Shown here one piece after another: positions 6,598-52,261 of a stretch of DNA of 64,000 bases; position 1 is the stretch's first letter, and the number at the start of each line of letters is the position of its first letter. The notes under the pieces were generated by a model that was not told the DNA's origin, ran no database searches, and saw nothing but the letters and a program-made list of their open reading frames with translations. The translations under genes and the position numbers were made by a program. Origin of the DNA: Albibacterium bauzanense (GTDB taxonomy: Bacteria > Bacteroidota > Bacteroidia > Sphingobacteriales > Sphingobacteriaceae); the NCBI RefSeq assembly GCF_004339765.1, contig NZ_SMGO01000001.1:868001-932000 (forward strand). Direction: 5' to 3'.

Positions 6598-8364
6598 ATG
6601 AAACTACTCCTCAAGTACTTAAGTAAGTATAAGCTACTTATCTTTATAGCACTCATTTTAGCAGCCATAAATCAAATATTTTCTTTATTAAATCCTTATA
6701 TACTTGGTAACTTCTTAATTGACCCCTTTGCAAATAAAGCAGCTGAATTCAGGAATACGGGTGCCAATACCGAATTCTTTAGAGGAGTAGCCATAGGTTT
6801 ATTGATGATTATCGGTGCAGCTATGGTTTCAAGGATTGCAAAGGCATTTCAAGACTATGTAGTGAATGTTATTATCCAGAAATTTGGAGCACAACTCTAT
6901 ACGGATGGCTTGCAGCATGCTATGCGCCTACCCTACCAAGACTTTGAAGATCAACGTAGTGGAGAAACCTTATCGGTTCTCCAAAAGGCTCGTGAAGACT
7001 GCTCTAATTTTATAACTGGTTTTGTAAATGTCCTCTTTGCAACCATTGTAGGTATCGTATTTGTAACAATTGTTGCTTTCCGCTTAAGCCCTTTACTTCC
7101 TTTAATCTATTTAGTAGGAACCTTTGCATTGGCATTTCTTACCAGCTTTTTAAGCAGAAAAATAAAAGCTATTCAAAAGAACATTACCAAAGAAACAACT
7201 GCTCTTGCTGGTTCTACCACTGAATCTTTACGTAATATAGAATTAGTTAAGAGTTTAGGGCTTACCCAGCAAGAAATCCTCCGGCTTAATGGTACTACCA
7301 TGAAAATTCTTAACTTGGAATTAAGAAAGGTCAAAAGTATACGTGCTATTAGTTTTGTTCAAGGAACCTTCGTAAACTTTTTACAACAGGTAATTATGTT
7401 TGCCCTGATCTCCTTCATATTTTATGATAAAATAACTGTCGGCCAACTCATGATGATGCAGATGTATTCCTTCTTCATTTTCGGCCCCTTACAAGAATTA
7501 GGAAACATCATCATGTCTTATCGTGAGGCAGAAGCTTCTTTGATTAATCTGGAAACTCTATTTTCAAAGAAAGTTGAATATCAACCTTTGATACCAGAAA
7601 AGATTAACTCCATCACGAATCTAAGATTCAACAATGTGAAATTCCAGCATCATATTGCCAAACAACCGGCTCTCGAAAATGTATCTTTTGAAGTAGAACG
7701 TGGCGAAACAATCGCCTTTGTCGGACCTTCTGGTGCGGGTAAAACAACCTTAGTAAAACTTTTAGTAGGATTATATACACCTACATCAGGCAATATTTAC
7801 TACAACCACATTAGCGAAAACAAAGTTGATTTTGAAGGCTTAAGACATCAAATAGGCTTCGTTACTCAAGACACACAGCTGTTTTCAGGATCAATCCGAG
7901 AGAATCTCTTATTTGTAAATCCGCATGCTACTGAAGAAATGATGCTGGAGGCCTTAAGAAAAGCATCTGGCAAAAGCATCCTTGATCGTGCAGAAAATGG
8001 ATTGGAAACTGTTATTGGTGAAGGTGGACTTAAATTATCAGGCGGAGAAAGGCAGCGTCTTTCAATAGCCCGATCTTTGTTAAGACAACCCAATTTAATT
8101 ATCTTTGATGAAGCAACTTCAGCGCTCGACTCTATTACTGAAGAGGAAATATCAAATACTATTAGAAGAATTACAGCAGAAAGACAACATATAACCGTTA
8201 TGATTGCACATCGGTTATCCACCATCATGTATGCTGACCGGATCTATGTTTTAGAGAAAGGCCACATTATAGAAACAGGAAGCCATAGTGAATTGTTAGA
8301 GTTAAAAGGGCTATATTATGCCATGTGGCGCCAACAAATTGGTGAAAGAGAAGTTCTCGTATAG
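6598..8364 (+). CDS. ABC transporter, fused permease and ATPase (MsbA/MDR type)
   Basis: This 588-residue half-transporter has about six membrane segments in the first 300 residues and an ATPase domain after about 340. Walker A is GPSGAGKTT, the signature is LSGGERQR, Walker B is LIIFDEATSALD and the H-loop is IAHRLST. As a homodimer it would export a lipid, drug or peptide across the inner membrane; the substrate cannot be read from sequence. I chose ATG 6598 over the TTG at 6562 because a TAACTTTG promoter element overlaps the TTG. It is transcribed divergently from the esterase gene and is probably monocistronic. Confidence 0.93.
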   Translation: MKLLLKYLSKYKLLIFIALILAAINQIFSLLNPYILGNFLIDPFANKAAEFRNTGANTEFFRGVAIGLLMIIGAAMVSRIAKAFQDYVVNVIIQKFGAQLYTDGLQHAMRLPYQDFEDQRSGETLSVLQKAREDCSNFITGFVNVLFATIVGIVFVTIVAFRLSPLLPLIYLVGTFALAFLTSFLSRKIKAIQKNITKETTALAGSTTESLRNIELVKSLGLTQQEILRLNGTTMKILNLELRKVKSIRAISFVQGTFVNFLQQVIMFALISFIFYDKITVGQLMMMQMYSFFIFGPLQELGNIIMSYREAEASLINLETLFSKKVEYQPLIPEKINSITNLRFNNVKFQHHIAKQPALENVSFEVERGETIAFVGPSGAGKTTLVKLLVGLYTPTSGNIYYNHISENKVDFEGLRHQIGFVTQDTQLFSGSIRENLLFVNPHATEEMMLEALRKASGKSILDRAENGLETVIGEGGLKLSGGERQRLSIARSLLRQPNLIIFDEATSALDSITEEEISNTIRRITAERQHITVMIAHRLSTIMYADRIYVLEKGHIIETGSHSELLELKGLYYAMWRQQIGEREVLV

Positions 8365-8402
8365 CAAATCATTTAAATTTATATTAATCCTTAATTTAGA
8401 TC

Positions 8403-9698
8403 ATGGAACAATACATAAAGAAAGTAGTCATTGTTGGAGGAGGCTTTGCAGGTGTTAATCTTATTAAGAAACTCACAAACGATCCTCGTTTTCAGGTGAC
8501 TTTAGTAGATAAAAACAATTATCATTTCTTTCCTCCTCTATTATATCAGGTTTCTACCGCATTTATTGAAAACTCAAATATAAGTTACCCTTTCAGGAGA
8601 ATGTTCCAACACAGAAGGAATATACGTTTTCATATTGGTTCACTAATTAAAGTAAATTCAGAAGAAAATACAATCGAAACGGATACTGGTATTCTTCCAT
8701 ACGACTACCTGGTTCTAAGTTTAGGTACTGAAACCAATTACTTTGGCATGGAAAACGTAAAGCAAAATGCTTTATCCATGAAAACAATTAGAGATGCTCT
8801 TAAACTGCGCGACCACCTGTTATTGAACATGGAAAAAGCTGTTCGTGCTGTCAATAAATTTGAGAAAACCAAATACTTCAATATTGTAATCGCAGGCGGC
8901 GGCCCTACAGGTGTAGAAATTGCAGGAATGCTAGCCGAAATGGTGCACAGTATCGGAGCTAAAGATTACCCTGAAATTACCGACCGTAAGGTGAACATCA
9001 TATTAATAGATGCTTCTCCATCATTACTAGGCCCGATGAGCAAGAAGTCTCAGGAAGAAGCAGCCAATGTATTAACAAAACTAGGAGTCCAAATTAAACT
9101 GAACACACCTGTAAAAGATTATAAAGACGGGAAGGTATTATTAGGAAATGGTGAAACAATCCCTACAAACTCATTAATCTGGACCTCAGGCGTTATCGCT
9201 TGTGAGGTAAAAGGCCTGGCCCCTGAAGCTATTGGCCGTGGCAGAAGAATAATAGTTGATGAGTATAACACTGTACATTCAACACAAAATGTCTTTGCTA
9301 TTGGTGATATTTGCTTGCAAACATCTGATGAACATTATCCAGGTGGCCATCCGCAATTAGCACAAGTGGCTATTCAACAAGGAGATCTTTTAGGAGAAAA
9401 CTTAAAAAAGATGGTTGAAAACAAACCTTTGCGTGCTTTCCATTATAAAAACAAAGGAAGCATGGCCATCATTGCAAAATATAAAGCTGTAGTTGATTTA
9501 CCGAAAGGATTTTTTAAAGGATTTTTTGCCTGGTTAGTTTGGCTATTCATCCATTTAATACCTATTGCCAGTTTCAGAAATAAATTCACCTTGATGTTTA
9601 ACTGGTTCTTTGCCTTTGCGACAAACGATCCTACTCTGCGTTTAATTATCAGCAAAGAGAAGAAAAAGGGAGAAGAAGTCAAGAAAGAACTGACTTAA
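8403..9698 (+). CDS. ndh: Type II NADH dehydrogenase-like flavoprotein
   Basis: This 431-residue protein carries two dinucleotide-binding motifs: VIVGGGFAGVNL near residue 10 for FAD and IAGGGPTGVEIAG near 165 for NAD(P)H. The FAD-contacting VFAIGDIC motif is near 300. A hydrophobic C-terminal stretch (about 375-395) fits membrane association. The family transfers electrons from NADH to quinone without pumping protons. The gene follows the ABC transporter by 38 bp, but the two roles are not obviously linked. Symbol by family resemblance. Confidence 0.88.
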   Translation: MEQYIKKVVIVGGGFAGVNLIKKLTNDPRFQVTLVDKNNYHFFPPLLYQVSTAFIENSNISYPFRRMFQHRRNIRFHIGSLIKVNSEENTIETDTGILPYDYLVLSLGTETNYFGMENVKQNALSMKTIRDALKLRDHLLLNMEKAVRAVNKFEKTKYFNIVIAGGGPTGVEIAGMLAEMVHSIGAKDYPEITDRKVNIILIDASPSLLGPMSKKSQEEAANVLTKLGVQIKLNTPVKDYKDGKVLLGNGETIPTNSLIWTSGVIACEVKGLAPEAIGRGRRIIVDEYNTVHSTQNVFAIGDICLQTSDEHYPGGHPQLAQVAIQQGDLLGENLKKMVENKPLRAFHYKNKGSMAIIAKYKAVVDLPKGFFKGFFAWLVWLFIHLIPIASFRNKFTLMFNWFFAFATNDPTLRLIISKEKKKGEEVKKELT

Positions 9699-9702
9699 AA
9701 TA

Positions 9703-9737
9703 AAACATCCTTACATTAAGTTAATGCAAGGATGTTT
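9703..9737. terminator. Terminator hairpin after the NDH-2-like gene
   Basis: Inverted repeat with 15-bp arms (9703-9717 and 9723-9737, one mismatch) followed by ATTAAATTTTTAT, between convergent genes. Confidence 0.75.
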
Positions 9738-9758
9738 ATTAAATTTTTATTCTATCAA

Positions 9759-10529
9759 TTAATAATTAGAATAATCCGTTGGATATAAAAACAACGTTAC
9801 ATTCTTTGACACATTATGTTGGTATTGAGGTAATTTACTTACCGGTGCATATTCTGGTGAAAATGCTTTCCAATGCTCATCTCTATCAGTCTTATTATTA
9901 AAGGTTGTCATGTACATCAAGTTAGGCATTGTACCACCAGAAATTACCTTTCCGTAAAATACTGCGTTAAAGTTTAGCTTGGTAAATATATCTAACTCAG
10001 CAAAATTAAACATATCAACTTTATTATCAGCCAGCTTCTCTGTTGCACTTTCATAACTGCGCAACTCATAGATCCGCTCACTTTTAGGTGAAGTTAGATT
10101 AGGTATAGCTGGTTTTAACATTCCCTCAAACGCCTTCATAATAATTGTTTCAATCCTTGTATAAGGTGCGTTATTATAAGCAGCATTTAAATAAGGAGCT
10201 CCAGCAGATTGAAATTGACTATCCTTTGCTAAGGTATTGTCAATATTTAAAAGCTGTTCAAACTTAGCTACCGGAGTGAATACATAGATCCGCTGATCTG
10301 CTGTATCTTGCACAACAGGTTTAAAAACACCGATTGCCGGAATACCTGCCCGGTGCATCGCCGGAATATAAGCATCCTTTAAAAACTGATCAACCTGCGC
10401 CTCTTGAGCTGCTGTTTTAAAATGGTAGATCTTCAATTGATAATAATAACCTTTGTCGCGGCTATATGCCAACGATGACATTAACATGCAAAATACCAAG
10501 GCTACTATTGGTAATAATTTAGGTTTCAT
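9759..10529 (-). CDS. Secreted NIPSNAP family protein
   Basis: This 256-residue protein has a signal peptide (about residues 1-23) and two NIPSNAP-type ferredoxin-like domains. The first starts at YYYQLKIYHFK and the second at RIYELRSYES, near residue 146. NIPSNAP proteins form dimeric alpha/beta barrels; no catalytic mechanism is established for the bacterial secreted ones. It converges with the flavoprotein gene. The function is unknown. Confidence 0.8.
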   Translation of the reverse strand: MKPKLLPIVALVFCMLMSSLAYSRDKGYYYQLKIYHFKTAAQEAQVDQFLKDAYIPAMHRAGIPAIGVFKPVVQDTADQRIYVFTPVAKFEQLLNIDNTLAKDSQFQSAGAPYLNAAYNNAPYTRIETIIMKAFEGMLKPAIPNLTSPKSERIYELRSYESATEKLADNKVDMFNFAELDIFTKLNFNAVFYGKVISGGTMPNLMYMTTFNNKTDRDEHWKAFSPEYAPVSKLPQYQHNVSKNVTLFLYPTDYSNY

Positions 10530-45910: not shown

Positions 45911-47113
45911 ATGAAAAAAATGCCTCTAATGAATAAAATAATTGTGCCTAGCAAATTAGATGATAAAGTTTTAGAAGGGCTATTTTTGACATTTGTAAAT
46001 ACTCCAAAAGATTTGGATTTGGAGTTACCATTAGAAATTAACTACAGAGGATTTGGTATTTTGCCCAAATTATTTCTTGTAATATTCACTTGGGTTAGAA
46101 ATAAAAACGGAAAACTCATAATTCCTATTGATATAAACAATGAATCAACTCTTTCAGAATTTGCTCAAAGCTATTTTGGCTATATTGTGCTATTAACAGT
46201 TTGGAAAGATTGTGATATAGAAAATCCATTAGGAGAATCCTTAAAAAGAGCCTTACGTCCATATACATCCCAATTTCATAACAAAATTGATTTTCTTAAA
46301 GGATTGCCAAACGATGCCATTCTAATCCCGAATTTTGATCATTATTCAAAATCACAAGGCTACTCTCATTGGTTTTATACTTTAAATTACGATTTTTTCG
46401 AAGTACCATCAGCATTGAATAATACAGTATATCGTGTTTTTGAATGTTTAAGTATAAATCTTAAAAGTAAAATCATTAATTCTAATAGTGGAATAATCGA
46501 AGATCTCCAATCAATCTTATGGGAATTAATGCGAAATACACATGAGCATGCAATCAAAGATCACTTAAATCAAATTAACATATCTCCAAATACACGTGGA
46601 GCATATTTTAGGATTCAACGAAGTTCTAAGAGAAACTTTATTAAAGAAGCTAAATCTCATAAAGGCTTAATTTCCTACTACGAAAACGCTCTGGAAGAGG
46701 GTGATAATTTCATGTTAGAGGTTTCTGTATTCGATAGTGGCCCTGGTTTAGTAAAGAGATTTTTAGGAGCGAAATGGGAAGATAATCTAAATATTCGAGA
46801 TGATGTTAATACGATTAAGCAATGTCTGATTAAGGGACAAACTTCGGTAGTTACATCTAAGGGGTTAAGTAAAGGTTTTGGATTGGACCATGTCCTTAAA
46901 CTGTTAAGCAAAAAACATGGTTTCTTAAAAATAAGAACTGGACGAGCCAGTTTATACCGTGATTTGATTAAAGCACCTTATTTTAAAACTCAGGATTTAT
47001 CAGAAGTGGTATTAAATGATTGGATAAACAGTTCTAATAGTTCATACGTCAACATGAATAACACTGAAGGAGCGATGATTACTATGGTGTATCCTATAAA
47101 TGAAATCAAATGA
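45911..47113 (+). CDS. Stand-alone GHKL ATPase, first gene of an unknown module
   Basis: This 400-residue protein has a histidine-kinase-like ATPase domain (about 195-400) with no kinase phosphoacceptor helix. The N box is ELMRNTHEHA (E205, N209), G1 is DSGPG (D275, G277, G279) and G2 is SKGLSKGFGL (G322, G324). The N-terminal 190 residues match no family I know and have no membrane segment. Its stop overlaps the next ATG by 4 nt (ATGA). It is AT-richer than its core neighbours, consistent with transfer. ATG 45929 is an alternative start. A regulatory or defence ATPase is inferred, not shown. Confidence 0.75.
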   Translation: MKKMPLMNKIIVPSKLDDKVLEGLFLTFVNTPKDLDLELPLEINYRGFGILPKLFLVIFTWVRNKNGKLIIPIDINNESTLSEFAQSYFGYIVLLTVWKDCDIENPLGESLKRALRPYTSQFHNKIDFLKGLPNDAILIPNFDHYSKSQGYSHWFYTLNYDFFEVPSALNNTVYRVFECLSINLKSKIINSNSGIIEDLQSILWELMRNTHEHAIKDHLNQINISPNTRGAYFRIQRSSKRNFIKEAKSHKGLISYYENALEEGDNFMLEVSVFDSGPGLVKRFLGAKWEDNLNIRDDVNTIKQCLIKGQTSVVTSKGLSKGFGLDHVLKLLSKKHGFLKIRTGRASLYRDLIKAPYFKTQDLSEVVLNDWINSSNSSYVNMNNTEGAMITMVYPINEIK

Positions 47114-49500
47114 AGAAATGCTACATATTTAGTTTCATCCATGATATCATTATCTCCGATCAGGGTGAAAAGAAAATTAATACCTTGGTTTTATTTTTTC
47201 CTTATAAAAATATCGAAAGGGATACAGAAGATGTTCAACTCCAACTAAGAGAATATTTCTATAAGAATATACCACCAGATAAAATAACAATTATATGCCC
47301 TGAATTTAACCAGGTTGAAGTCACAAAGATATTCAAAAAGGGATCTACAATTTATTCTTATATACCACATTTTGAAGGTGATGGTTTCAATGATAATATA
47401 AGTGCAATATCAATAAATAAATATGGTGTATTTAAAACATTCATAGGTACCGAAGTTAATATTGATCATATAGATGAAATTTACAATCGTGGTTTAATTA
47501 AGATATTTAATGCAAACGGTGGTTTAATAATCTCTAAATCGGCCCATCATTTTGTTTTCCCATCAGGAAAGCATTGTGATCGGTTTTTAAGGACAGGTAA
47601 CGTTTTGATACACGGTTCAGAAATACTGTTTATTGTATCAGCCCTAATTAAAAAATTTAAAAACAAAAGGTTCGAAAATATCTATTGCGATACTTCATCT
47701 ATCAATTCACTAGCTTATTCCTATATAACATTTCTTAAGGAACTAGATAATGACTATAATGCGTGCGTTAGAGTTGAGAGCTTTGGAAGCTACAAGTTAT
47801 TTGAGGAATCAAAGTTTACAACTGAAAGAGGTAGTTTATTTTTAATTTCAAGTAGTACGTCAGGTAGTATTATCAGAAGAATGACTGAGGATAAGCGGAG
47901 AAATATCGAATTAGAAAATATAGCAATTATATATGGACTGAGTGTAGATGACAGCTTTAATGGTCAAGTAATTTGTGACTTGACTATTGATCCCATTCAC
48001 AACCCAGATGGGTTAACTGAATTTAAAAGCTATAATCCATTAAAAGGAAAGTCTTGTAATCTCTGTAAAGACGCTTCAAAACCTATTGAAGTTCAGGGTG
48101 ATGTATTCTTATTAGAAAAACCGAATGTAGTTGGACAATTGATTTCTAAACTTGATGCTCCTTCCTTTCTAAATAAAATAGGATCGTTTTATGAAAAATC
48201 TAAAGACTCTAAAAATGCAGTGCTAAAATGTTACTTCAAGGATGATGGAGATGAAAAAAAGTATGATGTGTATATTGATATAGCCGAAATCCTCGGTGAG
48301 TGGGAAAATCGAAACAATAACAAGGCTCTATATAGTAAGGTATTTGAAAAGTTAGAGAAATATGTCCTGCAAAACATTCCCGCTTCATTGAAATATATGA
48401 TTGTTTTATCAGACGAGGCCTCTACAACTTTAGCAGAAATTATTTCTGAAATATTAAATCAAAACGGACTTCCTTTTAATAATAATAATATAATAAAAGA
48501 TTATGACCTTAAGAAAATTGATAAGAAGAAAAAAGGAACTATTGCTGTCATAAGTTCTTCTATTGTGTCAGGAAGAAACCTATTGTTTTTGGGTAGAGCC
48601 CTTCGGGATTTTGAATTAACTTATCAAAAGATGTTTTTTACATTTATCAATCGGACACAAAATCCAAAACACTGTGAATTTTTGGAATCAAATTTAGGGT
48701 TAGGTGAGTTTGGTAAAAACACGAATAGGATTATTAGCGTGGAAAAAATATACTGCTCTGACCAAGCTTATAAAACTTCATGGCATATGGAGTTAGATTA
48801 TGTTAAAGAAATAGAACAATATTGTGATTCCAAAGAAGATGAGTTTCCTAAAACATTAAAACACTGCAGAGAAAGAGAAGTAATATTAAACGAAAGCGGT
48901 CTAACGAATGGATTAATAGATAATTTATTTTTCCCCTCTACAGTAGATGACAAACCTTTAAAAATTCGTAAAGGTTTTGCATTCGCCCCAAATATTAAGT
49001 ACTTTATTGCTCGATCTACTCAATCAGAAATCTACTTTATAATTTCTTGCATAATTAACGAATTAAGGATTCAAGGACGATTAGATCAAAGCGAATATGT
49101 TCGAAATGTTTTAGATCCTGGCAATTTTATTAGATACAATGATGGTATCATACAAGCATGTTTATTAAGAGCGGCTACCACTGAAGAATTAAGATATGAT
49201 CTAACAGATGAAATGGGTTCTCAAATGAAACGAGTTCTTGGAGATATGATAATTCACTATGGTGACAACCACTCTGAAGGGTTAAATGAATTCTTCTATG
49301 CAATTGCCATTAAAAAGCTGCGATTAAAAGAGAATATTATTCAAGAATGCATAGACTTACTTGAAGATCAAAAAGCATACTTACATGGAGATTCTATACT
49401 CAAAGGGCTTATTGGCTTTATAAAGGACAAAGTTTTGATTCCAAAAAATATCACTGAAGACTTTATGAAATTCAGCGAAAAGCAAATAATAGTTGAATAA
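47110..49500 (+). CDS. Large protein with two phosphoribosyltransferase-like segments
   Basis: This 796-residue protein is coupled by a 4-nt overlap to the GHKL gene. Segment 1 (about 145-290) has FPSGKHCDRF followed by FLISSSTSGSII, resembling the orotate-PRTase N-terminus and a degenerate PRPP loop. Segment 2 (about 425-540) has MIVLSDEASTTLAEII and IAVISSSIVSGRNL, the same pattern. A CNLC pair (C316, C319) lies between them and could be part of a metal site. Both PRPP loops lack the usual acidic pair, so catalysis is doubtful. The 250-residue C-terminus (about 545-796) is unrecognised. The fold calls are by eye. Confidence 0.65.
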   Translation: MKKCYIFSFIHDIIISDQGEKKINTLVLFFPYKNIERDTEDVQLQLREYFYKNIPPDKITIICPEFNQVEVTKIFKKGSTIYSYIPHFEGDGFNDNISAISINKYGVFKTFIGTEVNIDHIDEIYNRGLIKIFNANGGLIISKSAHHFVFPSGKHCDRFLRTGNVLIHGSEILFIVSALIKKFKNKRFENIYCDTSSINSLAYSYITFLKELDNDYNACVRVESFGSYKLFEESKFTTERGSLFLISSSTSGSIIRRMTEDKRRNIELENIAIIYGLSVDDSFNGQVICDLTIDPIHNPDGLTEFKSYNPLKGKSCNLCKDASKPIEVQGDVFLLEKPNVVGQLISKLDAPSFLNKIGSFYEKSKDSKNAVLKCYFKDDGDEKKYDVYIDIAEILGEWENRNNNKALYSKVFEKLEKYVLQNIPASLKYMIVLSDEASTTLAEIISEILNQNGLPFNNNNIIKDYDLKKIDKKKKGTIAVISSSIVSGRNLLFLGRALRDFELTYQKMFFTFINRTQNPKHCEFLESNLGLGEFGKNTNRIISVEKIYCSDQAYKTSWHMELDYVKEIEQYCDSKEDEFPKTLKHCREREVILNESGLTNGLIDNLFFPSTVDDKPLKIRKGFAFAPNIKYFIARSTQSEIYFIISCIINELRIQGRLDQSEYVRNVLDPGNFIRYNDGIIQACLLRAATTEELRYDLTDEMGSQMKRVLGDMIIHYGDNHSEGLNEFFYAIAIKKLRLKENIIQECIDLLEDQKAYLHGDSILKGLIGFIKDKVLIPKNITEDFMKFSEKQIIVE

Positions 49501-50602: not shown

Positions 50603-52261
50603 ATGAAAAATATCTTTTTGTTAATTTTAATTAACCTAGCTAATTTTATTGCCTCTGCCCAAATTCCCGATCTCTACAAAACAGATGGAATTGTTGGAGA
50701 ATTACACAGATCTAACATTGGAAGAGTCACTTTTATGAATGAAAATATCCCATTAAACGAATATCAAAGTTCTGACTTTTTGAAATCCTTTGAACTGACT
50801 CATAATTCAGACCTAAATATTAGGGTCTTTATGGATAATTCAGTAGCAAATTATTTACACCGATTGGCTCCGCACTTGTCCGCAGAAGAACTTTTGAAGG
50901 CCGGCAATCTCCAATTTACTTTCTATGTCGACAATAAATTTATTTATCAAGAAAATATTGATCAAGGATGCAATTTTGGTTCAGGAGGGAGTAAAAACAC
51001 TTCAACAATATTTAGAGTTCCCCTGACCAGTTCAAAAGGAGAAGATTGGTGGGCGATGTATATGTGGGAAAGGTTTAAACTTAATGGAGGAGAAAAAGCA
51101 TTGACTGATGGTAATCATCAACTCAAAATTGAAATCAGACCCTACATAAAAATAGATGAAACTATTAAGGTCGGCAGTCTTATAGCAGATGGTCAGATTA
51201 AACTAATCATAAAAACACCTAAACTAACAGCAGAGGATATTAGAATCCAGCCTATTCAACCAAACAGCGGTTGGGTGATTTCGAATTTTCAATTTGACAA
51301 AAAGAAAATTGAAATGCTTAATGCCGCAATTGCTAGCTATAGCCTAAAGGATATAACAAGTGTTGTCGTCATCCATGATGGAAAATTAATGCTTGAAGAG
51401 TATTTTAACGGTGCTAAAAGGAGTACACTGCATGACACCCGCTCGGCTGGAAAATCTTTTACATCAACGCTAATGGGAATAGCTATCAAAGATGGATATA
51501 TCAAAAACGAATACCAAACGCTTAACACATTTTATAATTTAAAACAATTTGCAAATTACGAAGCAAAAAAAGACAGTGTAAGAATTAAAGATTTACTTAG
51601 CATGAGTTCTGCATTTAATGGTTCTGATGCAAATAGTGATTCACCCGGCAATGAAGAAAATATGTACCCTACAAATAACTGGGTGAAATTTACTTTGGAC
51701 TTACCTATGGATAAAGCTAAAACAAACGGTGGAAAATGGGATTACTTCACTGCTGGCGTGGTAGTATTAGGTGATCTTCTAAATAAAAATATTCCTGAAG
51801 GTCTAGAAAAATATGCTGATGAAAAACTTTTTAAGCCATTAAATATAACGAATTACCAATGGCAATATACTCCACAAAAAGTTGTAAATACTGCTGGAAG
51901 CTTACAAATGACATCTTTAGATTATGCAAAATATGCACAATTGTATAAGAACAATGGTGTTTGGAATGGTAAGCAGATAATTCCAAGTGAATGGGTTCAA
52001 AAGACTCTCACGCATCAAATCCAAATTCAGGAACGTGATAATCAATTTTATGGTTATTTGTTTTGGAATAAAAGTCTTCTTTTCAATGGCGTAAATCATG
52101 AAATTTATTATTGCGCTGGAAATGGTGGAAATGAATTTCTAATTTTCAAAGATCTACCCCTTGTCATTATCATAACCTCAAAAGCCTTTAATAAACCATA
52201 CGGGCATCCTCAGGCTGATAAAATTATAGTAGATTATTTATTGCCTGCAATATTGAACTAG
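50603..52261 (+). CDS. Serine hydrolase, class C beta-lactamase fold, with N-terminal extension
   Basis: This 552-residue exported protein has a signal peptide, an unassigned N-terminal half of mostly beta character (about 20-215), and a serine beta-lactamase/DD-peptidase-like domain from about 225. The catalytic SxxK is S281-A-G-K284, with a Tyr motif near 381 (DYFTAG). It may act as an esterase, peptidase or beta-lactamase in the periplasm; resistance should not be assumed. Its own -7 element and the AraC gene upstream suggest regulated expression. Confidence 0.85.
   Translation: MKNIFLLILINLANFIASAQIPDLYKTDGIVGELHRSNIGRVTFMNENIPLNEYQSSDFLKSFELTHNSDLNIRVFMDNSVANYLHRLAPHLSAEELLKAGNLQFTFYVDNKFIYQENIDQGCNFGSGGSKNTSTIFRVPLTSSKGEDWWAMYMWERFKLNGGEKALTDGNHQLKIEIRPYIKIDETIKVGSLIADGQIKLIIKTPKLTAEDIRIQPIQPNSGWVISNFQFDKKKIEMLNAAIASYSLKDITSVVVIHDGKLMLEEYFNGAKRSTLHDTRSAGKSFTSTLMGIAIKDGYIKNEYQTLNTFYNLKQFANYEAKKDSVRIKDLLSMSSAFNGSDANSDSPGNEENMYPTNNWVKFTLDLPMDKAKTNGGKWDYFTAGVVVLGDLLNKNIPEGLEKYADEKLFKPLNITNYQWQYTPQKVVNTAGSLQMTSLDYAKYAQLYKNNGVWNGKQIIPSEWVQKTLTHQIQIQERDNQFYGYLFWNKSLLFNGVNHEIYYCAGNGGNEFLIFKDLPLVIIITSKAFNKPYGHPQADKIIVDYLLPAILN

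What the first reader, a model, noticed from the sequence alone, without database searches (positions are those of the whole stretch)
45911..49500. Unrecognised two-gene module: GHKL ATPase coupled to a tandem PRTase-like protein
The sequence shows a stand-alone GHKL ATPase (N box, DSGPG and KGFGL all present, no phosphoacceptor helix) overlapping by 4 nt a 796-residue protein with two degenerate phosphoribosyltransferase-like segments (OPRTase-like SGKHCDRF, then LISSSTSGS; and VISSSIVSGRN) and a CNLC pair. Coupled genes, AT-rich composition, a decayed remnant upstream and accessory genes downstream fit a mobile conflict or defence cassette, with the ATPase as sensor/switch and the PRTase-like protein as effector or nucleotide-binding partner. 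I know no named system with this make-up. The defence role is inference.
Basis: partly seen in the sequence, partly recalled or inferred. Interest (0 to 1): 0.85.

Follow-up and report, generated by a model that had tools for sequence, protein, structure and literature searches.

The report
ATPase plus dead-PRTase defence-candidate gene pair
Two overlapping bacterial genes, an energy-using switch protein and a partner built from two apparently disabled nucleotide-making enzyme folds, form a portable pair that is often found near anti-virus genes and may help bacteria resist viruses, though this has not been tested.

Summary
ORF A (45911-47113) is a stand-alone GHKL ATPase with all motifs intact. 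ORF B (47110-49500) carries two phosphoribosyltransferase (PRTase) folds and a conserved C-terminal domain without a consistent Pfam match. The pair is not unrecognised: PADLOC lists it as phage-defence candidate PDC-M65 (E 4e-123 and 7e-262); one paper calls the PDC series unpublished, and my searches found no paper naming PDC-M65.

New here:
(1) A lies directly upstream of B in 76 of 81 fetched loci; in the other five B lies at a contig edge.
(2) A and B distances correlate at 0.96 over 68 pairs.
(3) PRTase-1 descends from Thermus-type orotate PRTase (TIGR01367) and keeps its His-His-Cys-Cys residues, while the acidic pair of the PRPP motif is absent from both PRTases in 88 of 88 sequences.
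(4) Nearest neighbours match 321 PADLOC models, an equal random set 7.
(5) Distribution is patchy: 5 of 395 genomes sampled from the phylum.

Best reading: an anti-phage module coupling an ATP-driven GHKL switch to a pseudo-PRTase nucleotide sensor. Defence and mechanism are inference. In this window no defence island surrounds it.

The parts
45911..47113 (+). gene A: stand-alone GHKL ATPase, PDC-M65A
   Evidence: PADLOC PDC-M65A E 4.3e-123; AF2 pLDDT 92.4; GHKL fold, SpoIIAB Z 8.3
46523..46537 (+). A: N box E205-x3-N209
   Evidence: E and N in 69 of 69
46733..46747 (+). A: G1 box D275-x-G-x-G279
   Evidence: D, G, G in 69 of 69
46874..46885 (+). A: G2 box G322-x-G-L325
   Evidence: G, G, L in 69 of 69
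47110..49500 (+). gene B: tandem pseudo-PRTase protein, PDC-M65B; ATGA overlap with A
   Evidence: PADLOC PDC-M65B E 7.4e-262; AF2 pLDDT 90.3; overlap
47110..47457 (+). B: N-terminal alpha/beta domain, residues 1-116, fold not tested alone
   Evidence: AF2 secondary structure
47458..48099 (+). B: PRTase-1 (residues 117-330), derived from Thermus-type orotate PRTase
   Evidence: VIA Z 12.1 to 4rv4, 11.6 to 4paw; hhalign to pyrE_Therm 82.4%, E 9.9e-6
47548..47574 (+). B: HF..PSGKH motif, H147 and H155
   Evidence: H147 75 of 75 and H155 71 of 75; corresponding motif in the consensus of 30 Thermus-type PyrE
47845..47865 (+). B: PRTase-1 degenerate PRPP-type loop (ISSSTSG); acidic pair absent
   Evidence: 0 of 88 with D/E
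48055..48066 (+). B: CNLC (C316, C319), counterpart of the CPLC of Thermus-type PyrE
   Evidence: C316 70 and C319 71 of 75; 28 of 30 PyrE have CxxC near the end
48157..48777 (+). B: PRTase-2 (residues about 350-556)
   Evidence: VIA Z 12.1 to 4fym and 11.7 to 6mxb; fold evidence only
48553..48573 (+). B: PRTase-2 loop SSSIVSG; SS stands at the acidic pair
   Evidence: 0 of 88 with D/E; register from a weak local hhalign to PyrE
48778..49449 (+). B: C-terminal helical domain (residues 557-780) with R675, D678, G679, I681, Q682, A683, L686, R687 and E727 invariant
   Evidence: those residues 75 of 75; no Pfam family matched by more than 3 of 38 members; in 395 genomes found only inside full B

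Best explanation
The pair is a member of the uncharacterised phage-defence candidate family PDC-M65 and most likely works as an ATP-gated sensor-effector complex. A is a GHKL ATPase that binds and hydrolyses ATP through the E205/N209 site and changes conformation, probably as a dimer. B is its obligate partner. Its two PRTase folds lack the acidic residues that hold PRPP in catalysis, but PRTase-1 keeps strictly conserved pocket residues, so they probably bind a nucleotide or ribose-phosphate ligand whose level changes during phage takeover. Ligand state and ATP state together release or activate the strictly conserved C-terminal domain of B, which carries out the damaging step (abortive infection). 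Shown by computation: the pair, the ATPase motifs, both PRTase folds, absence of the PRPP acidic pair, origin of PRTase-1 from Thermus-type orotate PRTase, co-inheritance, and company of defence genes. Inferred: physical complex, ligand, trigger, effector step, and defence itself.
For: PADLOC models of both genes. A adjacent upstream of B in 76 of 81 fetched loci; in the five without A, B begins within about 510 nt of a contig edge. Median spacing -4 nt over 73 single-ORF pairs. A/B distance correlation 0.957 in 68 pairs; highest of 2000 permutations 0.161. ATPase residues 69 of 69. PRTase folds. Acidic pair 0 of 88 against 30 of 30 in Thermus-type PyrE. Nearest neighbours: 133 proteins match 321 PADLOC models at 1e-10, 133 random proteins match 7. 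Named neighbours: Qat, TIR proteins, multiubiquitin/ThiF genes, type I restriction and bSEFIR. Patchy: B in 5 of 395 genomes of the phylum (two pyrE hits removed). Copies on plasmids and beside apparent conjugation genes (L016, ORF list; the conjugation label is my reading of the sequences, not a search).
Against: No experiment. In this window the 53 other proteins scanned show no defence island: the 25 of 49 matching models displayed are helicase models (GajB, RTasHel) and one mad3, each matched by one protein. The effector step is a guess: the C-terminal domain has no named relative. PRTase-2 rests on fold alone: hhalign to PyrE sets was under 3%, and no PRTase family of Pfam matched any of 25 PRTase-1 members. 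Z 8.3 for A is only just above what unrelated models often reach (note). The neighbour comparison counts models, not genes, is inflated by many type I restriction models, and its control is one phylum only while the loci span five. PADLOC probably chose its candidates by neighbourhood (recalled, from no call), so that evidence is partly shared. No match in 50,697 phage records; one locus in 2.9 million viral contigs.
Confidence: 0.45

Rival explanations
1. B is a live enzyme with changed chemistry: the PRTase-1 pocket (invariant D194, S227, Y228, S247) attacks a nucleotide or NAD-like substrate without PRPP, and A controls access. The toxin is the PRTase-derived site, not the C-terminal domain.
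For: D194, S227, Y228 and S247 are 75 of 75, more than a mere scaffold needs; PRTase-like effectors are reported for type III retrons (PMC12548924, passages read).
Against: The canonical PRPP acidic pair is absent in 88 of 88. C-terminal residues are at least as conserved.
Confidence: 0.22
2. Partner switch: A is a SpoIIAB/RsbW-like protein kinase or clamp that phosphorylates or holds B; the module regulates a stress or mobile-element programme rather than blocking phage.
For: The best structural match of A is SpoIIAB (Z 8.3), with the ExxxN glutamate 69 of 69.
Against: Histidine kinase EL346 (7.7), CheA (7.3) and CckA (7.3) lie within about 1 Z of it and topoisomerase VI follows at 6.8, so the order is a near tie; no third gene family recurs with the pair.
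Confidence: 0.15
3. An accessory nucleotide-metabolism sensor (PurR/PyrR-like use of a PRTase fold) that is mobile for other reasons and not a defence system.
For: B also matches PurR and PyrR structures; thyX directly precedes the pair in 3 rhizobial/agrobacterial plasmid records and dgt follows it in one.
Against: Matches to defence models are far commoner beside the pair than in the random set; Pfam shows no DNA-binding domain in the window's A or B.
Confidence: 0.13

Closest known systems
PADLOC phage-defence candidate PDC-M65 (PDC-M65A/B)
   Same: Both genes match over nearly the full profiles (positions 1-395/398 and 1-759/763).
   Different: Nothing that I could measure differs; the model entries carry no description of function, and the domain content, PyrE ancestry and absence of the PRPP acidic pair are additions of this report.
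Thermus-type orotate phosphoribosyltransferase (TIGR01367 pyrE_Therm)
   Same: PRTase-1 keeps counterparts of the GHF..SG.HS hood and the CPLC near the C-terminus; profile match 82.4%, E 9.9e-6.
   Different: Scores 12.0 bits against a cut-off of 150.25; acidic pair absent 88 of 88; joined to a second PRTase; paired with an ATPase. The host genome has its own pyrE elsewhere.
Type III retron PRTase effector
   Same: A PRTase-like protein in an anti-phage system (PMC12548924, passages only).
   Different: Retrons need a reverse transcriptase and ncRNA; no PADLOC model other than PDC-M65B was listed for B at E up to 1.
Shedu VcSduA with GHKL N-terminal domain
   Same: A GHKL ATPase proposed to control a defence effector (PMC12137116, passages read).
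   Different: There the effector is a fused PD-(D/E)xK nuclease; here the partner is a separate pseudo-PRTase protein.
SpoIIAB anti-sigma kinase (GHKL)
   Same: Best fold match of A, Z 8.3 over 132 residues.
   Different: A has an extra N-terminal region of about 130 residues, and its conserved partner gene is B.

Membership tests
PDC-M65 (PADLOC candidate) | protein A matches PDC-M65A over its length | tested here: met
   E 4.3e-123, positions 1-395/398
PDC-M65 (PADLOC candidate) | protein B matches PDC-M65B over its length | tested here: met
   E 7.4e-262, positions 1-759/763
PDC-M65 (PADLOC candidate) | the two genes adjacent | tested here: met
   ATGA overlap; 76 of 81 homologous loci
anti-phage defence system | protects against phage | not testable with these tools
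   needs plating assays
anti-phage defence system | neighbourhood rich in defence genes | tested here: met
   for the family: 321 against 7 PADLOC models; not so in this window
GHKL ATPase superfamily | N, G1 and G2 boxes and fold | tested here: met
   69 of 69; Z 8.3, rmsd 3.3, 132 aligned; Pfam HATPase_c is matched by only 7 of 69 members at E up to 0.1, best 0.0075
sensor histidine kinase | HisKA/DHp phosphoacceptor helix | tested here: not met
   no HisKA match in the window protein at E up to 1, and HisKA absent from the 17 families listed for the 69 members
type I phosphoribosyltransferase (fold) | PRTase fold | tested here: met
   two domains, Z 12.1 each
active type I phosphoribosyltransferase | acidic pair in the PRPP-binding loop | tested here: not met
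   0 of 88 in both domains, neighbouring registers also counted
Thermus-type orotate PRTase (TIGR01367) | curated score cut-off 150.25 bits | tested here: not met
   12.0 bits, E 0.12, first of the two families listed
Thermus-type orotate PRTase (TIGR01367) | GHF..SG.H hood and CxxC near C-terminus | tested here: met
   counterparts H147, H155, C316, C319 together in 78 of 88; PyrE consensus and 28 of 30 CxxC
type III retron | reverse transcriptase and ncRNA with PRTase effector | tested here: inconclusive
   no retron model listed for B; no ncRNA search was run

The most novel reading that the evidence does not exclude
A new class of immune sensor: a housekeeping pyrimidine enzyme (Thermus-type PyrE) was joined to a second PRTase, disarmed, and rebuilt as a nucleotide-pool sensor that a GHKL ATPase reads out, so that the cell dies or arrests when a phage shifts its pyrimidine or PRPP pools.
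Probability: 0.25. Interest if true: 0.85.

Novelty: new member of a known kind. Interest (0 to 1): 0.55.

Why it matters
PDC-M65 is a catalogue entry for which I found no described mechanism. This analysis gives it testable parts: an intact ATPase, a pseudo-enzyme of traceable ancestry, a possible His-His-Cys-Cys metal site, and a conserved C-terminal domain without a named family. If the sensor reading holds, it would show bacteria turning a biosynthetic enzyme fold into an infection alarm coupled to a GHKL switch.

Tried and rejected
A scan of genome contigs with the window protein alone found no relative; the alignment query then gave 129 relatives of 131 stretches, of which 80 were kept. 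Phage records: none. E. coli genomes by distant blastn of a Pantoea copy: none, a weak test at that divergence. Foldseek on A gave no match at E 0.001 or better; its top row was CheA P4 at E 0.061. Sequence-only search of solved structures: none for B, one implausible match for A. Pfam: no match above cut-off for the window's A or B; among 69 A members 7 match HATPase_c, best E 0.0075; among 38 C-terminal domains no family is matched by more than 3 (best E 0.0018, one member); among 25 PRTase-1 domains each of 14 listed families is matched by one member only and none is a PRTase. hhalign of PRTase-1 and PRTase-2 with ordinary PyrE was negative (0.45% and 2.9%); PRTase-1 against PRTase-2 gave 15.5%, E 0.0017 over 143 columns, suggestive only. 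Thermus-type PyrE matched PRTase-1 (82.4%), with controls PRTase-2 0.44%, C-terminal 1.57%, N-terminal 0.19%. One search gave 88.7% on a set of which only 16 of 30 were cleanly extracted, so supersedes it; one motif regex was mis-written and returned 0 of 30, so the hood motif is quoted from the consensus line (upper case = 90% or more) instead. The co-loss of H155 with CxxC (7 of 7) is weak as covariation: on the tree, CxxC loss needs only 3 changes, at least 2. Two of the 7 phylum hits of model B were PyrE and were removed. Two of the 7 phylum hits of model A (G051, G382; E 4.4e-4 and 8.7e-4) had no B hit and were taken as chance or generic GHKL, not examined further. Empty-site test: too little synteny to define one. 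Seven of 140 nearest neighbours were left out for size. The ten neighbours were hand-picked; 4 of 10 matched at 1e-30, one of them only to helicase models.
Full report
OBSERVATION. Two ORFs of 400 and 796 aa lie at 45911-47113 and 47110-49500 on the + strand and share an ATGA overlap. Their GC is 0.309 against 0.366 for the rest of the window. PADLOC identifies them as PDC-M65A (E 4.3e-123) and PDC-M65B (E 7.4e-262); no other PADLOC model was listed at E up to 1. NCBIfam and Pfam give no match above their cut-offs. Searches for 'PDC-M65', 'PDCM65' and 'PDC M65' in the paper library found nothing. A paper on Bacillus cereus defence calls the PDC-x series unpublished candidates from Payne et al. 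2021 (PMC11811056, passages). The neighbouring entry PDC-M66 is described as similar in architecture to the validated system DS-6 (PMC12548924, passages).

THE PAIR IS REAL AND OBLIGATE. A scan of named genome contigs with an alignment of B gave 129 relatives, 80 of them kept, and a scan of viral contigs one more. Gene A lies directly upstream of B in 76 of these 81 loci; in the five others B begins within about 510 nt of a contig edge. Spacing is -176 to +29 nt, median -4, over the 73 loci with both genes as single ORFs. A and B distances correlate at 0.957 over 68 pairs; the highest of 2000 permutations was 0.161. In plasmids, 11 records hold B; in 10 a full-length A lies upstream, and the eleventh (Caballeronia) is a C-terminal remnant. 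Two R. leguminosarum records gave an A hit without a B hit; in the one that I opened, about 60 residues of B follow A and then IS-rich DNA.

DISTRIBUTION. In 395 genomes drawn from the window's phylum, model B rang in 7, of which two are PyrE, leaving 5 including the window's own. Model A rang in 7, of which 5 are the same genomes. The phylum is Bacteroidota by inference: contig G304:C1 and a Croceitalea dokdonensis contig have the same length, 794,410. Among 60 relatives only the window's genome has a full A; one other has an 80-residue fragment. Named loci span Bacteroidota, Pseudomonadota, Acidobacteriota, Verrucomicrobiota and Planctomycetota; the B tree needs 6 phylum changes where 4 is the minimum, so transfer between phyla is rare or, given MAG binning errors, unproven, while the patchy spread within the phylum points to frequent gain or loss.

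PROTEIN A. AlphaFold confidence is 92.4. VIA places SpoIIAB first (Z 8.3, rmsd 3.3, 132 aligned), close to histidine kinases and CheA. N, G1 and G2 boxes, including the base-type glutamate E205, are invariant in 69 of 69. No histidine phosphoacceptor domain was matched. The first 130 residues were barely tested by the fold search (note).

PROTEIN B. AlphaFold confidence is 90.3. Foldseek finds UMP synthase and orotate PRTases, then PurR and PyrR (best E 1.5e-5). VIA finds two separate PRTase domains: 117-321 (4rv4, Z 12.1, rmsd 5.0, 179 aligned) and 354-548 (4fym, Z 12.1, rmsd 4.3, 167 aligned). PRTase-1 also aligns with 4paw (HP1257) over 124-328 at Z 11.6.

ANCESTRY OF PRTase-1. The two stray phylum hits of model B are PyrE of TIGR01367 (pyrE_Therm), at 210.6 and 225.1 bits. 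In NCBIfam, TIGR01367 is the first of two families listed for the window's PRTase-1, though only at E 0.12. A search of 198 genomes with a PRTase-1 profile gave 20 weak matches (E 0.003 to 0.08) outside B; 14 of them lie in genomes that were also searched for TIGR01367, and 13 of those 14 sit on a pyrE_Therm match above the cut-off (the fourteenth, G098:C53, could not be matched to the listed rows, and the other 6 were not examined). hhalign of PRTase-1 with 30 pyrE_Therm sequences gives 82.4%, E 9.9e-6; PRTase-2, C-terminal and N-terminal domains give at most 1.6%; ordinary PyrE against pyrE_Therm gives 95.8%; but PRTase-1 against ordinary PyrE gives 0.45%. Searching 1,894 ORFs of the fetched loci with the pyrE_Therm profile ranks the two pyrE genes first (each present in two overlapping loci) and then 34 B entries, some from overlapping loci, before any other ORF (E 0.022). 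The family consensus GHFxLTSGrHS and CPlC corresponds to H147, H155 and C316/C319 of B; all four are kept in 78 of 88 B proteins. That they bind a metal is inference.

ABSENCE OF THE CATALYTIC PAIR. The acidic pair of the PRPP loop, present in 30 of 30 pyrE_Therm sequences, is absent in both PRTases of all 88 B proteins, whichever of the neighbouring registers is taken. Yet D194, S227, Y228 and S247 are 75 of 75, which suggests a kept binding pocket. The C-terminal domain holds W558, E561, R589, R675, D678, G679, Q682, A683, R687 and E727 in 75 of 75, has no Pfam family matched by more than 3 of 38 members, and in 395 genomes occurs only within full B (5 genomes).

CONTEXT. The nearest ORF on each side of the pair (133 of 140 proteins from 77 loci; seven were left out for size) matches 321 PADLOC models at 1e-10; 133 of 198 ORFs from 13 arbitrary stretches of the window's phylum match 7. 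These are counts of models, not of genes; the output shows only the first 25 families, and type I restriction models inflate the first count (at most 6 of 133 members for any one family). Individual examples: Qat genes on a Pseudomonas aeruginosa plasmid, TIR proteins and multiubiquitin/ThiF genes on rhizobial plasmids, type I restriction subunits and bSEFIR. Other plasmid copies lie among metabolic genes. No neighbour family recurs in more than 6 of 77 loci, so the module is two genes. The window itself shows no defence island among 53 other proteins.

MECHANISM. The most likely picture is an ATP-gated GHKL switch bound to a pseudo-PRTase ligand sensor whose C-terminal domain acts on the cell. 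Everything after the domain facts is inference. The three rivals are a live enzyme of changed chemistry, a SpoIIAB-like kinase partner switch, and a nucleotide-metabolism sensor without a defence role.

NOVELTY. The pair is a member of a catalogued candidate, so it is not a new kind of locus. The domain anatomy, PyrE ancestry and absence of the PRPP acidic pair were not seen in the listings of searches, nor in the passages read of four papers; that library lacks most subscription journals and holds no bioRxiv preprints. The DefensePredictor paper mentions a PRTase and a HATPase in figure legends without details (PMC13092281: passages, figure legends, abstract and outline), so an overlap there cannot be excluded.

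Noticed in passing
L012:7538-8476, L014:7534-8472, L024:6745-7683: A thyX gene (FAD-dependent thymidylate synthase) lies directly upstream of the pair in the three rhizobial/agrobacterial plasmid records opened that hold both genes in full; in L014 a dgt gene follows. A possible link to nucleotide pools.
   Followed up: no
L022:10454-10786 (minus): A same-family genome carries a 110-aa ORF whose second part matches only about the first 80 residues of A, next to a PIN-like ORF (my reading of its start): a decayed copy or reuse of the N-terminal region of A.
   Followed up: partly
L010:7594-8010 and 8007-9920: In a Spirosoma plasmid, B is split into two ORFs near residue 140.
   Followed up: partly
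L028:9422-10815: In a Rhizobium leguminosarum plasmid, A is full length but B is cut to about 60 matching residues before IS-rich DNA.
   Followed up: partly
L055 and L056: Maribacter aquimaris carries two copies of the pair on two contigs with nearly the same scores and lengths.
   Followed up: no
window 50603-52261: Beta-lactamase-fold protein whose best NCBIfam match is 3-succinylated cholic acid synthase (E 5.7e-28, 97.6 bits, far below the cut-off of 800).
   Followed up: no
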